A DNA stretch of 6,462 nucleotides from JACPSX01 sp035288405 [NCBI: bacterium] (GTDB lineage: Bacteria > JACPSX01): NCBI GenBank assembly GCA_035288405.1, contig DATEAK010000020.1, positions 1 to 6,462 of the forward strand. Direction: 5' to 3'. Of the stretch, positions 2,173 through 6,462 are shown piece by piece (position 1 is the stretch's first letter; each line of letters starts with the position of its first letter). A model generated the notes under the pieces. That model had not been told where the DNA came from, searched no databases, and saw only the letters and a list, made by a program, of their open reading frames with translations. Both the position numbers and the translations under genes were made by a program.

Positions 2173-4554
2173 GTGCTTAGGATTGCGATTGTTGGCGCCG
2201 GCCACGGAGGTACGGCGCTCCTTCAACTCCTGCACAAAAAACCGGGAATTGAAATTGTCGGTATTGCCGATCGCAATCCCCAGGCTCCTGGCTTGGCACT
2301 GGCCAGCCAGTTCGGTCTTCCTACCACTCAGGATATTCGAGAACTGCTGAAATCTCCGCTGCCTCAAATGCTTATCGACGTATCGGGAGATCCAGAGGCG
2401 GCTGTCGCTCTCAAAGCGATGATTCCCCCAACGACAGAGTTTCTTTCTGGACATAGCCTCCATCTTCTATGGAGCCTGATCCAGGATCAAAATCCTCTGA
2501 CGATCCAGGTGAAAGAATCCATGGAAGCCATTCTGAATCTCGATTCAGAGGATCGATTCACCTTCTGGAACCGGGGAGCGGAACAACTGCTGGGCTACCG
2601 ATCCGAGGAGGTCATAGGAAAGCCGGTTTCCTTCATCGTTCCCCCGGAGCGTAAAGGGGAAGTCGACAAGATTCGCGAGTCCCTGAAAGAGCAGGGTTTC
2701 TTGCGCGACTTCGAGACCGAGCGGTTGGCCAAAAGCGGCATCCGGATTCCGGTCAGTATCAACGTAACTGCGGTGCGGGACGAGAAGGGGCAGCGGGTAC
2801 ATCTTACCGCCGTTCTGCGGGACATTCGGGAAAGCAAAAAACTGTCCCAGGAGAGAGAGGCTCGCTTCCAGGAACTCAAAACCCTTCATGAGATCAGCCA
2901 GACGATTTTAAATGCTCAAGATCTGAAAACCATTCTCGATGGGATCCTGGACAAGGCTATTGCGGTGGGTTCCTTCGACCTGGGCATTATCCGTCTTTTG
3001 GACTCCCGCGCGAAAAGGCTCGAGCCCGTAGCGTCCCGCGGATATCAAAACCCTGAAAACGTAGAGTTCCATCCGCAAAACTCGATAAATTCGAAGATGT
3101 CAAAGCTCCTGCTCCGAATCATGACTTACCAGGAGTCTCGTGTAGAAGAAAATGTCCCGGAGTGCGAGGGGCTGCGTACGTTCAAGCGCGAGGGAGTTCA
3201 GTCAGCCATCGTGATCCCCGTGCGTGCCGGAGAGGAGATGCTCGGAGTTCTGCAACTGGGAAGCCGCACCCCGCGCAAGTTCCTGCCGGCCCAGGTGGAT
3301 CTCTTGGAAGCGATCGGCAGCCAGATGGGCATCGCCGTGCAAAAAGCCCGGCTGTACGAGGAGACCCGACAGGCCTACGAAAGGCTCAAAGCAACCCACG
3401 AGCAGATGATTCAGGTGGAGCGGCTGCGAGCTCTGGGGGAACTGGCCAGCGGCGTCGCCCACGACTTCAATAACCTGCTGACCGCAATTCTGGGGCGCAC
3501 CGAGGTCCTCCTGGAAAAAGTCAAAGATCCAGCCGTTCGAAAGAGCCTCGAAGTGATTCATAAAGCTACACTGGACGGGGCTTCCACAGTCCAGCGAGTG
3601 CAGGAGTTCGCCCGGTTTAAAGACGAGGAACCCAATACCGCATCCGTCGACCTTGCCGCGATTGTGGCCGACGCCATTGAGTTTACTCACAGCCGCTGGC
3701 TCAAGGAGTCGCAAACCGCCGGAATCTCCATCATCATGAAAAACGAATGTAAGGACCTGCCCCTGGTTCTCGGAAGTCCTTCTCAACTCAGAGAAGTGTT
3801 CACCAACCTGATCCTCAACGCAGTGGACGCCATGCCCCAGGGAGGAACTATCCACTTTCAGGCTCAAACGAGTGGAAATCTTATTGTCCTGGAGGTCAGC
3901 GATACGGGAATCGGCATCCCACCGGCGACCCAGCAGAGCATCTTCCAGCCATTTTTCACCACCAAGAATCAAAAGGGAACAGGACTCGGGCTCAGTATTG
4001 TGGAAGGGATTATCCAGCGGCATCAGGGGAGCATTCGGGTGAAAAGCCAGGAAGGCCAGGGCACGACTTTTACGATCCACCTTCCGATCGCCACCCCGGT
4101 TGCAGACGGTGAGACGGTGAAAGTTTCCGCTGATACCGGCCCCATGGGGAACATTCTGATCATCGATGACGAGGAACCCGTTCGGGAGATCCTGTATGAT
4201 ATTCTCGAGCTGGCTGGTTACAAAGCGCAAGCGGTCGCTTCAGGCCCCGAGGGACTGGCCTTACTGAAAGAGACAGATTTCGACCTGCTGATCACCGACC
4301 TGAAGATGCCCGTAATGAACGGCTGGGAAGTTGCAAAGGCCGTCAAAGCTTCTCATCCGGATCTCCCCGTGGTGCTCGTCACCGCGTGGGGGAAGGAATT
4401 GACCAGGAAGCAATCCCGGGGGAATGGAGTGGCAGCAGTCATTACCAAACCATTCCGTTCCCGGGAAATCACCGACACAGTCTCCGAACTCCTCGGCAAG
4501 ACTCGGAAGAAAGCATTCAGCAGCCAGCAATCAGAACTCAGAGGGATGCCCTGA
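2173..4554 (+). CDS. Hybrid sensor histidine kinase with N-terminal Rossmann domain (Rossmann-PAS-GAF-HisKA-HATPase-REC), 793 aa
   Basis: This is a cytoplasmic two-component hybrid kinase with no membrane segments or signal peptide. Domain order: Rossmann NAD-binding-like (residues 1-~105) with GAGHGG at 8-13 (GxGxxG) and Asp33 at the end of strand 2, as in NAD-preferring folds; PAS/PAC (~113-220); GAF (~240-392); a short coiled linker; HisKA with the H-box 'GVAHDFNNLL', phospho-acceptor His430; HATPase with N-box Asn549, G1 DTGIG 577-581, an 'FQPFFTTK' F-box and G2 GTGLG 602-606; receiver (~658-780) with acidic pair Asp665/Asp666, phospho-acceptor Asp709, Thr737 and Lys759. All catalytic residues appear intact. 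No DNA-binding or Hpt domain is visible, so the output partner lies elsewhere. The GTG 2173 start is chosen over an upstream extension of 38 residues (see the ribosome site). The last ~13 codons lie in a palindromic repeat. Redox or dinucleotide sensing by the Rossmann domain is inference. Confidence 0.9.
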   Translation: MLRIAIVGAGHGGTALLQLLHKKPGIEIVGIADRNPQAPGLALASQFGLPTTQDIRELLKSPLPQMLIDVSGDPEAAVALKAMIPPTTEFLSGHSLHLLWSLIQDQNPLTIQVKESMEAILNLDSEDRFTFWNRGAEQLLGYRSEEVIGKPVSFIVPPERKGEVDKIRESLKEQGFLRDFETERLAKSGIRIPVSINVTAVRDEKGQRVHLTAVLRDIRESKKLSQEREARFQELKTLHEISQTILNAQDLKTILDGILDKAIAVGSFDLGIIRLLDSRAKRLEPVASRGYQNPENVEFHPQNSINSKMSKLLLRIMTYQESRVEENVPECEGLRTFKREGVQSAIVIPVRAGEEMLGVLQLGSRTPRKFLPAQVDLLEAIGSQMGIAVQKARLYEETRQAYERLKATHEQMIQVERLRALGELASGVAHDFNNLLTAILGRTEVLLEKVKDPAVRKSLEVIHKATLDGASTVQRVQEFARFKDEEPNTASVDLAAIVADAIEFTHSRWLKESQTAGISIIMKNECKDLPLVLGSPSQLREVFTNLILNAVDAMPQGGTIHFQAQTSGNLIVLEVSDTGIGIPPATQQSIFQPFFTTKNQKGTGLGLSIVEGIIQRHQGSIRVKSQEGQGTTFTIHLPIATPVADGETVKVSADTGPMGNILIIDDEEPVREILYDILELAGYKAQAVASGPEGLALLKETDFDLLITDLKMPVMNGWEVAKAVKASHPDLPVVLVTAWGKELTRKQSRGNGVAAVITKPFRSREITDTVSELLGKTRKKAFSSQQSELRGMP

Positions 4555-4592: not shown

Positions 4593-5585
4593 TTAGCGAT
4601 AGAGCTTGTCAATAAATCCGCTGCTCTCCAGCTCGGTATCCAAACTCTCATCCACAAACCGGTTCATGGTTACATTTTTCGCCTCAGGGCGCTGCTCGGC
4701 CACCGCCTCCCGGATTGTGTTTAGAATCTCCGGGGCGAACCGCAAATTTCTGGGAGCACCCTGGGAAGACAGGCGATAATCGTACTCGGCCAGATCCGGA
4801 GTCATTCGAAGATATTTCGCCAGGATTTTCAGGCTCCCATCCCGGTTCGTTTTAAAGTAGTGGGTGGCCTCGGCAAATCCCATCAGAATCCGCTTCAGCA
4901 GATCCCGGTTGTCTCGCATGAATTCTCGTTTCACCACCACGGCCGCATCCGAGTAAGGCACTTTGCCGGCGGCAATGTCGTAGGCCACATTGAACCCCAT
5001 ACTTTGAGCTTTCTTGTGGCCCGCCGGCGTGATCGTGGCCGCATCGGCCCCCCCGGATAGGACTGATGCGAGACGATCCGAAGACCCTCCCGCCTGGATC
5101 AGCTGATAATCCCGGTCCGCTTCCAGTCCGAATTTCTTCAAGGCAAAGCGGGTCACAAAGTCCGAGGAGCTTCCCCGGCGTCCGATGGCGATCCTCTTTC
5201 CCTTGAGATCCTCCGGTCGTGTGATTCCCTCCCGGGCGACGATTTCGTTCGTCATCAGGCTCGAAAGATTGCCCACCATAATCATATCCGCTCCGGCCAG
5301 CGCGCCGTTCACTGTGCTCACCGGCGAGAGCACTCCGAACTGAACTTGGCCGGAGATGATGGCCGCTACCGCAGCCGCCCCTCCCTGGACGAAGATCATT
5401 TCCACATCCAGGCCCTGCTTCTGAAAGAAGCCGGCCTCCTTTGCGATCCATAGTGCCCCCTCGCTTGCCGTCGGAGTGCTGTAGATGGACTTGATGCTTT
5501 GGGCTTCTATGGAAACACCTCCCAATCCGCCCAGGACAAGGATCCCTCCCACCAAAAGCGCCGAAAAGATCATTCTGAGTTTCAT
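4593..5585 (-). CDS. ABC transporter periplasmic substrate-binding protein, NMT1/SsuA-type, 330 aa
   Basis: This is a type-2 periplasmic binding fold that delivers a small ligand to an ABC importer. The start at 5585 gives a Sec signal peptide: MKLR, then a hydrophobic run to ~residue 24, with likely cleavage after Ala28 (SIEA|QS). No lipobox cysteine is present. Family features follow: 'EGALWIAKEAGFFQKQGLDVEM', 'AIISGQVQFGVLS' and 'PEDLKGKRIAIGRRGSSSDF'. These are typical of NMT1/THI5, SsuA and TauA relatives, and the length is normal. GGAGGAGGG (minus strand, 5596 to 5588) precedes the ATG. An upstream in-frame ATG at 5684 would overlap the previous gene and bury the signal peptide, so it is rejected. 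It lies 37 bases after a related binding-protein gene, in the same operon. The ligand is not predictable: taurine, sulfonates, nitrate, pyrimidine precursors and aromatic acids are all known in the family. No ATPase or permease gene is in the window. Confidence 0.87.
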   Translation of the reverse strand: MKLRMIFSALLVGGILVLGGLGGVSIEAQSIKSIYSTPTASEGALWIAKEAGFFQKQGLDVEMIFVQGGAAAVAAIISGQVQFGVLSPVSTVNGALAGADMIMVGNLSSLMTNEIVAREGITRPEDLKGKRIAIGRRGSSSDFVTRFALKKFGLEADRDYQLIQAGGSSDRLASVLSGGADAATITPAGHKKAQSMGFNVAYDIAAGKVPYSDAAVVVKREFMRDNRDLLKRILMGFAEATHYFKTNRDGSLKILAKYLRMTPDLAEYDYRLSSQGAPRNLRFAPEILNTIREAVAEQRPEAKNVTMNRFVDESLDTELESSGFIDKLYR

Positions 5586-5587
5586 TT

Positions 5588-5596
5588 CCCTCCTCC
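5588..5596 (-). promoter_or_regulatory. Ribosome binding site for the downstream binding-protein gene
   Basis: GGAGGAGGG read on the minus strand ends 2 bases before the ATG at 5585-5583, with its GGAGG core 6 bases upstream. It fixes the start at the signal peptide rather than at upstream in-frame codons. Confidence 0.6.
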
Positions 5597-5622
5597 ATTC
5601 GAGCAAGGTTTTGGTGTCGCCT

Positions 5623-6462
5623 TCAGCGATACAAGCTCCGAATAAAACCGCTTTCGTCGAGCTCTTTGACAAAGCGATTATCAAAAAAGTCTTCCGGGTT
5701 CGCAGTTTTCGCCGCCGGGATCGTGGGCGCCCTCTGGTCCAGAACCGCCTTCACAGCCGCAGCCGGAACATAGGGAATCGCCTCGAAGATCGGCTCATAC
5801 TCCTGATACGTCTTCTCCAGAATATCTCCCTCCGTTGTCTTCGTGTACTTGCCGATCACTTTCTTAGTGTATTCCTTGTCCGTCTTGGAAACGGCGATCC
5901 CTTCCACAAAGGCTTTTACGAACGCGCGCACGCTGTCCGGGCGGGCTTTGAGATAGTTATCGCTCACGGCGACCCCGGCCAAGATGTACGGGAATTTGTA
6001 CTTCCACGTATCCACCAGGAGTCTGAGTCCCAGTTGATCCGCTTTGAAACTGGATGGCGGGGCCAGAAGCCCTGCCTGGACGACACCCGATGCGACGGAA
6101 GCCAAAATTTCAGGCACACTGCGGGTCTGGATGATCCCTACATCCGTACCCATCTTGAGGCCCGCCTCCTTTAAAATGATCTGCATGGCCAGGTCCACGC
6201 CCGACCCAAACCGGGTGATCGCCGCCTTTTTTCCCTTCAGATCCGCGACGCTGCGAATGTCCTTCTGCGCGTAGAGGTGGAAACGCAGGTAATTACTGTA
6301 GGCGAGCACCATCTTGATCCCGGCTCCGGCCATCCGGGCATCGATAATCCCGGCACCGGCCGTCTCGGCAATCTGAATGTCACCGGAAATTAACGCCGGC
6401 GCCACCTGGGCGCTGCTGGCCAGATAGATGAGCGTCACATCGAGTCCATATTTATCAAAGAG
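5623..6462 (-). CDS. ABC transporter substrate-binding protein, NMT1/SsuA-type (N-terminus beyond window)
   Basis: The frame is open from the right edge (6462) to the TGA at 5623, giving about 279 residues. It begins inside the family motif 'LFDKYGLDVTLIY', so roughly 40-50 residues, including the expected signal peptide, are missing. Further family features are 'APALISGDIQIAETAG', 'VADLKGKKAAITRFGSGVD' and 'ASVASGVVQAGLLAPP', consistent with a type-2 periplasmic binding protein. The C-terminus 'ESGFIRSLYR' parallels 'SSGFIDKLYR' in the next gene, which shows common ancestry, but the cores differ widely. A GTG at 6438 would be an internal, wrong start because it truncates the first helix. The substrate is unknown. 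It is the upstream member of the minus-strand operon. Confidence 0.87.
   Translation of the reverse strand, partial: LFDKYGLDVTLIYLASSAQVAPALISGDIQIAETAGAGIIDARMAGAGIKMVLAYSNYLRFHLYAQKDIRSVADLKGKKAAITRFGSGVDLAMQIILKEAGLKMGTDVGIIQTRSVPEILASVASGVVQAGLLAPPSSFKADQLGLRLLVDTWKYKFPYILAGVAVSDNYLKARPDSVRAFVKAFVEGIAVSKTDKEYTKKVIGKYTKTTEGDILEKTYQEYEPIFEAIPYVPAAAVKAVLDQRAPTIPAAKTANPEDFFDNRFVKELDESGFIRSLYR

What the first reader, a model, noticed from the sequence alone, without database searches (positions are those of the whole stretch)
2173..4554. Rossmann NAD-binding-like domain fused to a PAS-GAF hybrid histidine kinase
The first ~105 residues show strand-GAGHGG-helix, an acidic residue (Asp33) at the end of strand 2 and 'LIDVSGDPEA', all as in Gfo/Idh/MocA-like or homoserine-dehydrogenase-like NAD domains. 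No catalytic oxidoreductase domain follows; a PAS domain comes directly after. This suggests a cytoplasmic kinase that could sense NAD(H) or a related nucleotide directly. Similar architectures may exist in environmental genomes, but their ligand is, to my knowledge, not established. All kinase and receiver catalytic residues are present, so it should be an active enzyme.
Basis: partly seen in the sequence, partly recalled or inferred. Interest (0 to 1): 0.62.

Follow-up and report, generated by a model that had tools for sequence, protein, structure and literature searches.

The report
Widespread NAD-type sensor on signalling proteins
This bacterial signalling kinase carries, as its input end, a small domain built like the NAD-binding part of metabolic enzymes, and the same domain turns out to sit on many unrelated kinds of bacterial signalling proteins, so it may be a general, so far unnamed way for cells to read their metabolic or redox state.

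Summary
ORF 2173-4554 (GTG start, 793 aa) is Rossmann-PAS-GAF-HisKA-HATPase-receiver, with catalytic motifs intact and no oxidoreductase domain. Residues 1-106 fold as an NAD-type Rossmann domain (pLDDT 86.5; nearest solved structures: acylating acetaldehyde dehydrogenase, Gfo/Idh/MocA; Rex also matches).

The same N-terminal domain occurs in several bacterial phyla, fused to histidine kinases, sigma54 activators, chemoreceptor signalling domains or diguanylate cyclases, and alone. Among 109 complete non-redundant proteins Pfam finds HATPase_c in 41, GGDEF in 26, MCPsignal in 23 and Sigma54_activat in 14, but GFO_IDH_MocA in only 26. In 89 relatives that my search pattern did not force, the glycine motif and an acidic residue 33 are kept together in 85; position 33 is acidic in 89 of 89.

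Several sigma54-type members sit in front of bkd-like (BkdR position), methylmalonyl-CoA or fumarase operons. In a Nitrospira kinase one predicted helix runs from the Rossmann domain through the phospho-acceptor histidine.

Most likely: a non-catalytic sensor binding an adenine dinucleotide, NAD(H) first choice, that steers the output through its last helix. Ligand binding is inferred, not shown.

The parts
2173..4554 (+). hybrid histidine kinase gene, GTG start, 793 aa: Rossmann-PAS-GAF-HisKA-HATPase-receiver
2173..2490 (+). N-terminal Rossmann sensor domain, residues 1-106
   Evidence: Pfam GFO_IDH_MocA 6.6e-8; model pLDDT 86.5, pTM 0.80; PDB matches
2194..2211 (+). GxGxxG dinucleotide loop GAGHGG, residues 8-13
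   Evidence: conserved
2269..2271 (+). Asp33, acidic end of strand 2 (adenosine ribose position in NAD enzymes, recalled)
   Evidence: D 82 + E 7 of 89 relatives not forced by the search pattern
2371..2394 (+). end of strand 4, LIDVSGDP, residues 67-74 (family: [DEN]-x-T-G)
2449..2490 (+). last helix of the sensor, residues 93-106, proposed signalling helix
   Evidence: continuous with the phospho-acceptor helix in the Nitrospira model
2527..2832 (+). PAS domain, residues 119-220
2914..3342 (+). GAF domain, residues 248-390
3433..3618 (+). HisKA domain, residues 421-482, phospho-acceptor His430 at 3460-3462
3775..4092 (+). HATPase_c domain, residues 535-640
4153..4482 (+). receiver domain, residues 661-770, phospho-acceptor Asp709 at 4297-4299

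Best explanation
Residues 1-106 are a non-catalytic sensor domain, one member of a large family of N-terminal Rossmann domains that bacteria attach to many signalling outputs. I think it binds an adenine dinucleotide in the cytoplasm, NAD(H) first choice: the glycine loop would hold the pyrophosphate, Asp33 the adenosine ribose, and the [DEN]-x-T/S-G loop after strand 4 would lie by the nicotinamide side. Which redox form is bound, or whether the pocket is filled at all, would change the position of the last helix (93-106). That helix leads into the next domain (PAS here; straight into the phospho-acceptor helix in Nitrospira kinases) and so sets kinase activity; the phosphate then goes to the attached receiver. 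Shown here: the domain, its predicted fold, its family, the conservation of the pocket motifs, the range of outputs, the metabolic operons beside several sigma54 members. Inferred: ligand, direction of the effect, the helix mechanism. The PAS and GAF domains are further inputs of unknown ligand.
For: Fold: AlphaFold2 model pLDDT 86.5, pTM 0.80; Foldseek best 4jn6, 4lrt, 1nvm, acylating acetaldehyde dehydrogenases at about 1e-5, and all 35 rows at E <= 1e-3 are NAD(P)-type oxidoreductase domains; VIA-align Z 13.7, rmsd 2.8, 113 aligned with 4lrs_B; GenD2 with NAD, 6nor, Z 12.7; Rex 7wb3 Z 10.4. Profile against PDB sequences: 4lrs 7e-7, Rex 5zz5 2.3e-5. Conservation in 89 non-redundant relatives that do not match my search pattern: G8 88 (1 gap), G10 86, position 13 G 72/C 16/A 1, position 33 D 82/E 7, T71 83, G72 78; loop and acid together in 85 of 89. 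A profile of residues 41-112 alone gives 117 unique hits without the forced pattern; 110 keep G.G..[GASC]. No catalytic use: the Lys of the Gfo/Idh/MocA EKP motif (recalled) has no counterpart, Lys at positions 91-96 in 0, 1, 0, 9, 1, 0 of 138. Outputs: 109 complete proteins, HATPase_c 41, GGDEF 26, MCPsignal 23, Sigma54_activat 14. Metabolic context of sigma54 members by family libraries: L285 precedes phosphate butyryltransferase, a Glu/Leu/Phe/Val dehydrogenase, butyrate kinase, dihydrolipoyl dehydrogenase, E1 alpha (the last below its cut-off); L276 and L279 precede succinate-CoA ligase and methylmalonyl-CoA mutase; L042, L097, L274, L275, L277, L278 precede fumarate hydratase. Coupling: helix 98-154 in the Nitrospira kinase model passes the phospho-acceptor His.
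Against: No binding was tested. A Rossmann fold alone does not name a ligand; the nearest structures are enzymes whose site also takes CoA (recalled). Five relatives have an altered loop (L143, L213, L257, L259, L260), so some members may not bind dinucleotides. The profile was built from sequences that all carry the motifs, and the loci fetched are the better-scoring ones. The continuous helix is in another protein, with block pLDDT 58 to 77 over residues 101-140 and pTM 0.46. The operons handle acyl-CoAs and organic acids as well as NADH, and other sigma54 members lie by sugar kinase, FAD oxidoreductase or amidohydrolase genes, so context does not single out NAD(H).
Confidence: 0.6

Rival explanations
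1. The domain senses CoA or an acyl-CoA (or another acyl or organic-acid metabolite) rather than NAD(H), reporting the load on branched-chain amino acid, propionate and dicarboxylate catabolism.
For: Closest structures are acylating acetaldehyde dehydrogenases, which use both NAD and CoA (recalled). Sigma54 members lie by phosphate butyryltransferase, methylmalonyl-CoA mutase and succinate-CoA ligase genes.
Against: Position 33 is acidic in 89 of 89 unforced relatives, which fits a free ribose and not the 3'-phosphate of CoA; the acetaldehyde dehydrogenases have Gly at the aligned place (alignments). The genes behind the Nitrospira kinases show no such link; the neighbours of GGDEF and MCP members were not examined.
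Confidence: 0.17
2. The domain has lost ligand binding and works as a dimerisation or protein-docking module, for example for a metabolic dehydrogenase or a scaffold.
For: No catalytic part; the last helix, with A96 and W100 common (106 and 76 of 138), leads into the output helix; some members have altered loops.
Against: A pocket with no ligand should not keep GxGxx[GAC] plus an acid at 33 in 85 of 89 diverged relatives.
Confidence: 0.13
3. The domain binds another adenosine ligand such as SAM, ADP-ribose, AMP/ADP or FAD and reports something other than redox state.
For: The same loop and acid serve several adenosine ligands in Rossmann proteins (recalled). Lower rows of the fold searches include proteins that are not NAD domains, such as GAR transformylase, a haem-binding protein, MurC and methionyl-tRNA formyltransferase.
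Against: All 35 Foldseek rows at E <= 1e-3 are NAD(P)-type oxidoreductase domains, and the 11 PDB sequence matches are dehydrogenases or reductases and Rex.
Confidence: 0.08
4. It is a true oxidoreductase fragment or a chance gene fusion without function.
For: Pfam calls it GFO_IDH_MocA.
Against: The same fusion layout recurs: L282 is Rossmann-PAS-GAF-HisKA-HATPase-receiver, 799 aa, and the family occurs across several phyla on signalling outputs.
Confidence: 0.02

Closest known systems
Rex, NAD(H)-sensing repressor
   Same: Rossmann domain used to sense NAD+/NADH, reviewed in PMC8063818 (passages seen); matches the profile at 2.3e-5 and the model at Z 10.4
   Different: Rex has the Rossmann domain C-terminal of a DNA-binding domain and a domain-swapped helix (PMC8063818 passages); here it is N-terminal and drives kinases, AAA+ activators, cyclases or chemoreceptor domains
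BkdR, sigma54 activator of the bkd operon of Bacillus
   Same: L285 has this Rossmann domain, two PAS regions, Sigma54_activat and HTH_8 (690 aa) and stands in front of ptb, a Glu/Leu/Phe/Val dehydrogenase, buk, lpd and an E1 alpha-like gene, the order that passages of PMC4428206 give for B. thuringiensis
   Different: Output is a sigma54 activator, not a kinase. The named BkdR of B. subtilis or B. thuringiensis was not read here; the passages seen of PMC4428206 and PMC3734008 mention only PAS/PAC domains at its N-terminal side
Acylating acetaldehyde dehydrogenase (DmpF/BphJ type, names recalled)
   Same: nearest fold and sequence among solved structures: 4lrs Z 13.7, 7e-7
   Different: enzyme with a catalytic domain; Gly in place of the acid at position 33 in the alignments
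Gfo/Idh/MocA oxidoreductases (PF01408)
   Same: Pfam match over residues 2-68; GxGxxG and acid after strand 2
   Different: no catalytic C-terminal domain, no EKP lysine, T-G in place of the usual T-P after strand 4 (usual form recalled)
Hybrid PAS/GAF histidine kinases
   Same: kinase and receiver motifs present
   Different: Rossmann input domain in front

Membership tests
Hybrid histidine kinase | HisKA, HATPase_c and receiver with catalytic residues | tested here: met
Hybrid histidine kinase | autophosphorylation | not testable with these tools
   needs purified protein
Gfo/Idh/MocA oxidoreductase | N-terminal NAD-type Rossmann domain | tested here: met
   Pfam 6.6e-8 over 2-68; fold
Gfo/Idh/MocA oxidoreductase | C-terminal alpha/beta catalytic domain | tested here: not met
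   PAS follows at 119
Gfo/Idh/MocA oxidoreductase | EKP lysine after strand 5 (recalled) | tested here: not met
   LSGHSLHLLW 91-100; Lys at 91-96 in 0 to 9 of 138
Rex-type NAD(H) sensor | GxGxxG and acidic residue after strand 2 (recalled as shared with Rex) | tested here: met
Rex-type NAD(H) sensor | winged-helix DNA-binding domain and swapped C-terminal helix | tested here: not met
   architecture
Rex-type NAD(H) sensor | NAD(H) binding that changes output | not testable with these tools
   no binding assay
The Rossmann sensor family described here | domain at the N-terminus of a signalling output, [DEN]-x-[TS]-G after strand 4, last helix before the output | tested here: met
BkdR | Sigma54_activat and HTH_8, bkd operon neighbours | tested here: not met
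   the window protein is a kinase; neighbours are hemerythrins and NMT1-type binding proteins

The most novel reading that the evidence does not exclude
Bacteria possess a general NAD(H)-sensing input domain, comparable in use to PAS or GAF, that was overlooked because Pfam files it, when it sees it at all, under oxidoreductases. It plugs into histidine kinases, sigma54 activators of the BkdR type, chemoreceptor-type proteins and diguanylate cyclases, so that one redox signal can reach transcription, phosphorelays, motility and c-di-GMP.
Probability: 0.45. Interest if true: 0.85.

Novelty: new variant of a known kind. Interest (0 to 1): 0.66.

Why it matters
Direct NAD(H) sensing is well established for Rex, but I found no account of it as a built-in input of histidine kinases, chemoreceptors or sigma54 activators (paper searches, open-licence papers only). 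If right, one testable domain would explain the input of many orphan signalling proteins, including kinases common in Nitrospira genomes and BkdR-type regulators, and it could be tested at once in a laboratory strain.

Tried and rejected
Relatives in viral contigs: four scans gave no relative. Phage records: the five best of 203 listed match only from residue 402 on, the kinase part. Plasmid records: 15 matched the domain: one is the relative in Acetoanaerobium noterae, L001, 12 are annotated acetaldehyde dehydrogenases, two are Listeria records (one annotated SAF-domain protein, one without annotation) that I did not pursue. The first genome scan with a back-translated alignment found nothing; a DNA pattern found 107 stretches. 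That pattern forces residues 8-10, 12, 13, 27-31, 33, 35 and 40 in whole or part, so I did not rest the conservation claim on those loci; E27, which it forced, is poorly kept elsewhere (22 of 89).

Chance or fragment: rejected on recurrence of the same layout. True oxidoreductases also match the profile, but weakly: the Gfo/Idh protein of N. moscoviensis scores 1.3e-4 and 2e-6, against the limit of 1e-12 used in the surveys; the Nitrospirota survey used 1e-6 (118 of 198; 93 of 198 at 1e-12 by my count of its table). I did not check each weaker Nitrospirota match.

Domain tree: 139 rows, 110 columns, 71 of 136 inner branches unresolved. Output type needs at least 18 changes among labelled rows, 29 if unlabelled rows count as a state, against a shuffled mean of 69. 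It suggests several swaps of output and cannot order them. 14 of the 139 rows got no output label from my motif patterns.

A direct look at B. subtilis BkdR failed: control genomes are named but not readable, no Bacillus record of the plasmid collection matched the domain of L009 (one search matched the PAS and sigma54 part), the 1999 BkdR paper is not held. PMC12016497 came up for Rossmann only as an author name.

Neighbour of the window-type kinase: a rubrerythrin-family gene (Pfam, L287) lies beside it in four genomes; these are near-copies, so it counts once. The window has two hemerythrin-type genes instead. This hints at di-iron proteins but is too little to build on.
Full report
What is there. 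The gene at 2173-4554 codes for 793 residues. Pfam gives GFO_IDH_MocA at 2-68, PAS 119-220, GAF 248-390, HisKA 421-482, HATPase_c 535-640 and a receiver 661-770. The kinase and receiver motifs are there, and no stretch looks hydrophobic enough for a membrane span. The match is beyond chance: 6.6e-8 for the domain alone, and 12 of 20,000 shuffles carry the spaced motif in the first 60 residues.

Fold. A model from 103 aligned domains (window plus 102 of the 107 pattern loci; five were cut too short) has pLDDT 86.5 and pTM 0.80, with strands 2-7, 26-32, 66-69, 89-91, a short extended piece near 51-52, and a last helix 93-106. Foldseek's best solved structures are acylating acetaldehyde dehydrogenases at about 1e-5; the 35 rows at E <= 1e-3 are all NAD(P)-type oxidoreductase domains. 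VIA-align gives Z 13.7 (rmsd 2.8, 113 aligned) for 4lrs_B, 12.7 for GenD2 with NAD and 10.4 for Rex. By sequence profile the solved relatives are acetaldehyde dehydrogenase (7e-7) and Rex (2.3e-5), then a DapB-type reductase and Gfo/Idh/MocA proteins.

A family of input domains. One plasmid-collection record, Acetoanaerobium noterae, encodes the domain in front of a stretch with a chemoreceptor signalling motif. A strict DNA pattern, absent from 200 shuffles of the window and from the viral collection, found 107 stretches in the genome collection. By eye all 107 read in frame as this domain, with Gly8 at residue 7 to 15 after the nearest start codon. Ten representatives by Pfam: HisKA/HATPase with or without receivers and GGDEF, Sigma54_activat with PAS and HTH_8, MCPsignal, GGDEF with GAF, and one protein with PAS and GAF only.

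Profile surveys of whole genomes: phylum of N. moscoviensis 118 of 198 (E 1e-6); phylum of a Mariprofundales genome 98 of 299; phylum of a MAG titled Deltaproteobacteria 56 of 198; phylum of a Virgibacillus genome 60 of 199 (a second, overlapping draw from a Pelotomaculum genome 46 of 149); phylum of an Acidobacteriaceae genome 8 of 149; phylum of a Brocadia genome 6 of 149 (E 1e-12 each). These centres were chosen because they had the domain, so the shares are not unbiased. Records titled Omnitrophota and Nitrospinota are among the loci too.

Other forms: short proteins of about 215 residues, domain plus a minimal MCP part (L213, L215-L218); two domains in tandem before PAS (L219-L222; L220 by Pfam ends in a kinase); stand-alone copies, seven of the 109 proteins being 123-141 residues long. 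Of 138 non-redundant domains in 134 proteins, 25 proteins were cut by the end of their stretch and left out. In the 109 complete ones Pfam at 1e-5 finds HATPase_c 41, HisKA 34, GGDEF 26, MCPsignal 23, Sigma54_activat 14, HisKA_3 4, Response_reg 4, but GFO_IDH_MocA in 26, DapB_N 11 and NAD_binding_3 8 (25 of 31 families are printed, so a rare catalytic domain could be among the six not shown). Pfam thus sees the Rossmann part in a minority, which would explain how it was missed.

Is the pocket kept? The pattern forced several positions, so I counted only relatives that do not match it. Of 276 profile hits, 138 are non-redundant below 75% identity, 89 of them outside the pattern. There: G8 88 (one gap), G10 86, position 13 G 72, C 16, A 1; position 33 D 82, E 7; A44 88; position 69 D, E or N 88; T71 83; G72 78. 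Loop and acid together: 85 of 89. A profile that never saw residues 1-40 gave 238 unique hits, 117 outside the pattern, of which 110 keep G.G..[GASC] in the stretch before; of the seven others two are cut by the contig end and five have changed loops. The catalytic lysine place of Gfo/Idh/MocA enzymes is not kept. I read this as a pocket under selection for an adenosine dinucleotide with free ribose, and no catalysis. That reading of Asp33 and of the T-G loop is from general knowledge of NAD enzymes.

Context. In Nitrospira the 345-residue Rossmann-HisKA-HATPase kinase is followed, usually overlapping, by a longer gene; in N. moscoviensis Pfam finds HAMP, PAS, HisKA, HATPase_c and, under its cut-off, dCache_1 in it. 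Of 54 loci, 46 show that gene's start by eye (L074 a diverged one); L028 and L063 gave unclear frames, L031, L045 and L083 have a gene that looks like a peroxiredoxin, L057 none, and L071 and L092 have no sequence there. A second Nitrospira type has HisKA_3 and stands beside a receiver-GerE (NarL-type) regulator in both genomes looked at, L139 and L141.

Sigma54 members give the best clue. L285 (690 aa; two PAS, Sigma54_activat, HTH_8) precedes phosphate butyryltransferase, a Glu/Leu/Phe/Val dehydrogenase, butyrate kinase, dihydrolipoyl dehydrogenase and an E1 alpha-like gene (the last below its NCBIfam cut-off), the order given for the bkd operon driven by BkdR in PMC4428206 (passages). L009, L051 and L058 show parts of the same order, L009 and the cut L051 gene scoring below the butyryltransferase cut-offs. 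L276 and L279 precede succinate-CoA ligase and methylmalonyl-CoA mutase. L042, L097, L274, L275, L277 and L278 precede fumarate hydratase alpha; sucC follows in L042, a malic-enzyme-like gene in L277 and L278 (below the cut-off), and MeaB precedes in L274. Not all fit: L280 and L055 lie by FAD oxidoreductases, L281 by an amidohydrolase, L085 by an FGGY sugar kinase, and L099 and L104, by eye, by sugar genes as well. So the theme is catabolism in general and not one pathway.

Same architecture elsewhere. L282 is Rossmann-PAS-GAF-HisKA-HATPase-receiver, 799 aa (my profile finds the Rossmann part; Pfam the rest); L286-L288 hold near-copies in three other genomes. L283 is Rossmann-PAS-HisKA-HATPase-two receivers-GGDEF. 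The window domain's best identity among the loci is about 51%, to Nitrospira locus L050; its own organism is unknown and no genome is held.

Mechanism. In the Nitrospira kinase the Rossmann domain is joined to the phospho-acceptor helix with almost no linker. The model of L016 (54 sequences) shows one helix 98-154, from the last Rossmann helix past the phospho-acceptor His136; mean pLDDT 80.1, pTM 0.46, block means 58 to 77 over residues 101-140. A change in the pocket could thus turn or shift the kinase helix directly. In the window protein the same helix enters a PAS domain. This is inference.

Known or new. A Rossmann NAD(H) sensor is known (Rex); kinases with odd inputs are known. What I could not find, in the ten paper searches named under Why it matters, is this domain as a shared sensory module. 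Only open-licence papers are searched there, and I saw passages, not whole papers, of PMC4428206, PMC3734008, PMC11206085, PMC6046458, PMC9332280, PMC8063818 and PMC12016497 (of the last also abstract and outline); other papers only as search listings. I therefore call it a new variant of a known kind.

Noticed in passing
511-1326 and 1423-2007: Two hemerythrin-type genes (DUF2249 plus HHE, and HHE) lie directly upstream of the kinase on the same strand; they may be its targets or share its signal (oxygen, NO or iron).
   Followed up: partly
225-488: Small two-cluster 4Fe-4S ferredoxin-like ORF upstream.
   Followed up: no
4593-6462, minus strand: Two NMT1-type binding protein genes in tandem, convergent with the kinase.
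   Followed up: no
L219, L220, L221, L222: Proteins with two copies of the Rossmann sensor in tandem before PAS domains (L220 also Pfam). In all four the first copy has Gln or His at position 12 of the glycine loop (GRQG, GRHG), unlike the second copy.
   Followed up: partly
L149, L214, L223, L224, L225, L226: Stand-alone copies of the domain, about 130 residues, in several genomes; partner proteins unknown.
   Followed up: no
L213, L215, L216, L217, L218: Very short proteins, sensor plus a minimal MCP signalling part of about 100 residues, apparently with no room for a membrane anchor.
   Followed up: no
L257, L259, L260: Members of about 800 residues from the Acidobacteriota survey with a GANLEG loop in place of GxGxxG; they may bind something else or nothing.
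   Followed up: no
L282, L286, L287, L288: A rubrerythrin-family gene (Pfam on L287) next to kinases of exactly the window architecture in four closely related genomes, while the window has hemerythrins.
   Followed up: partly
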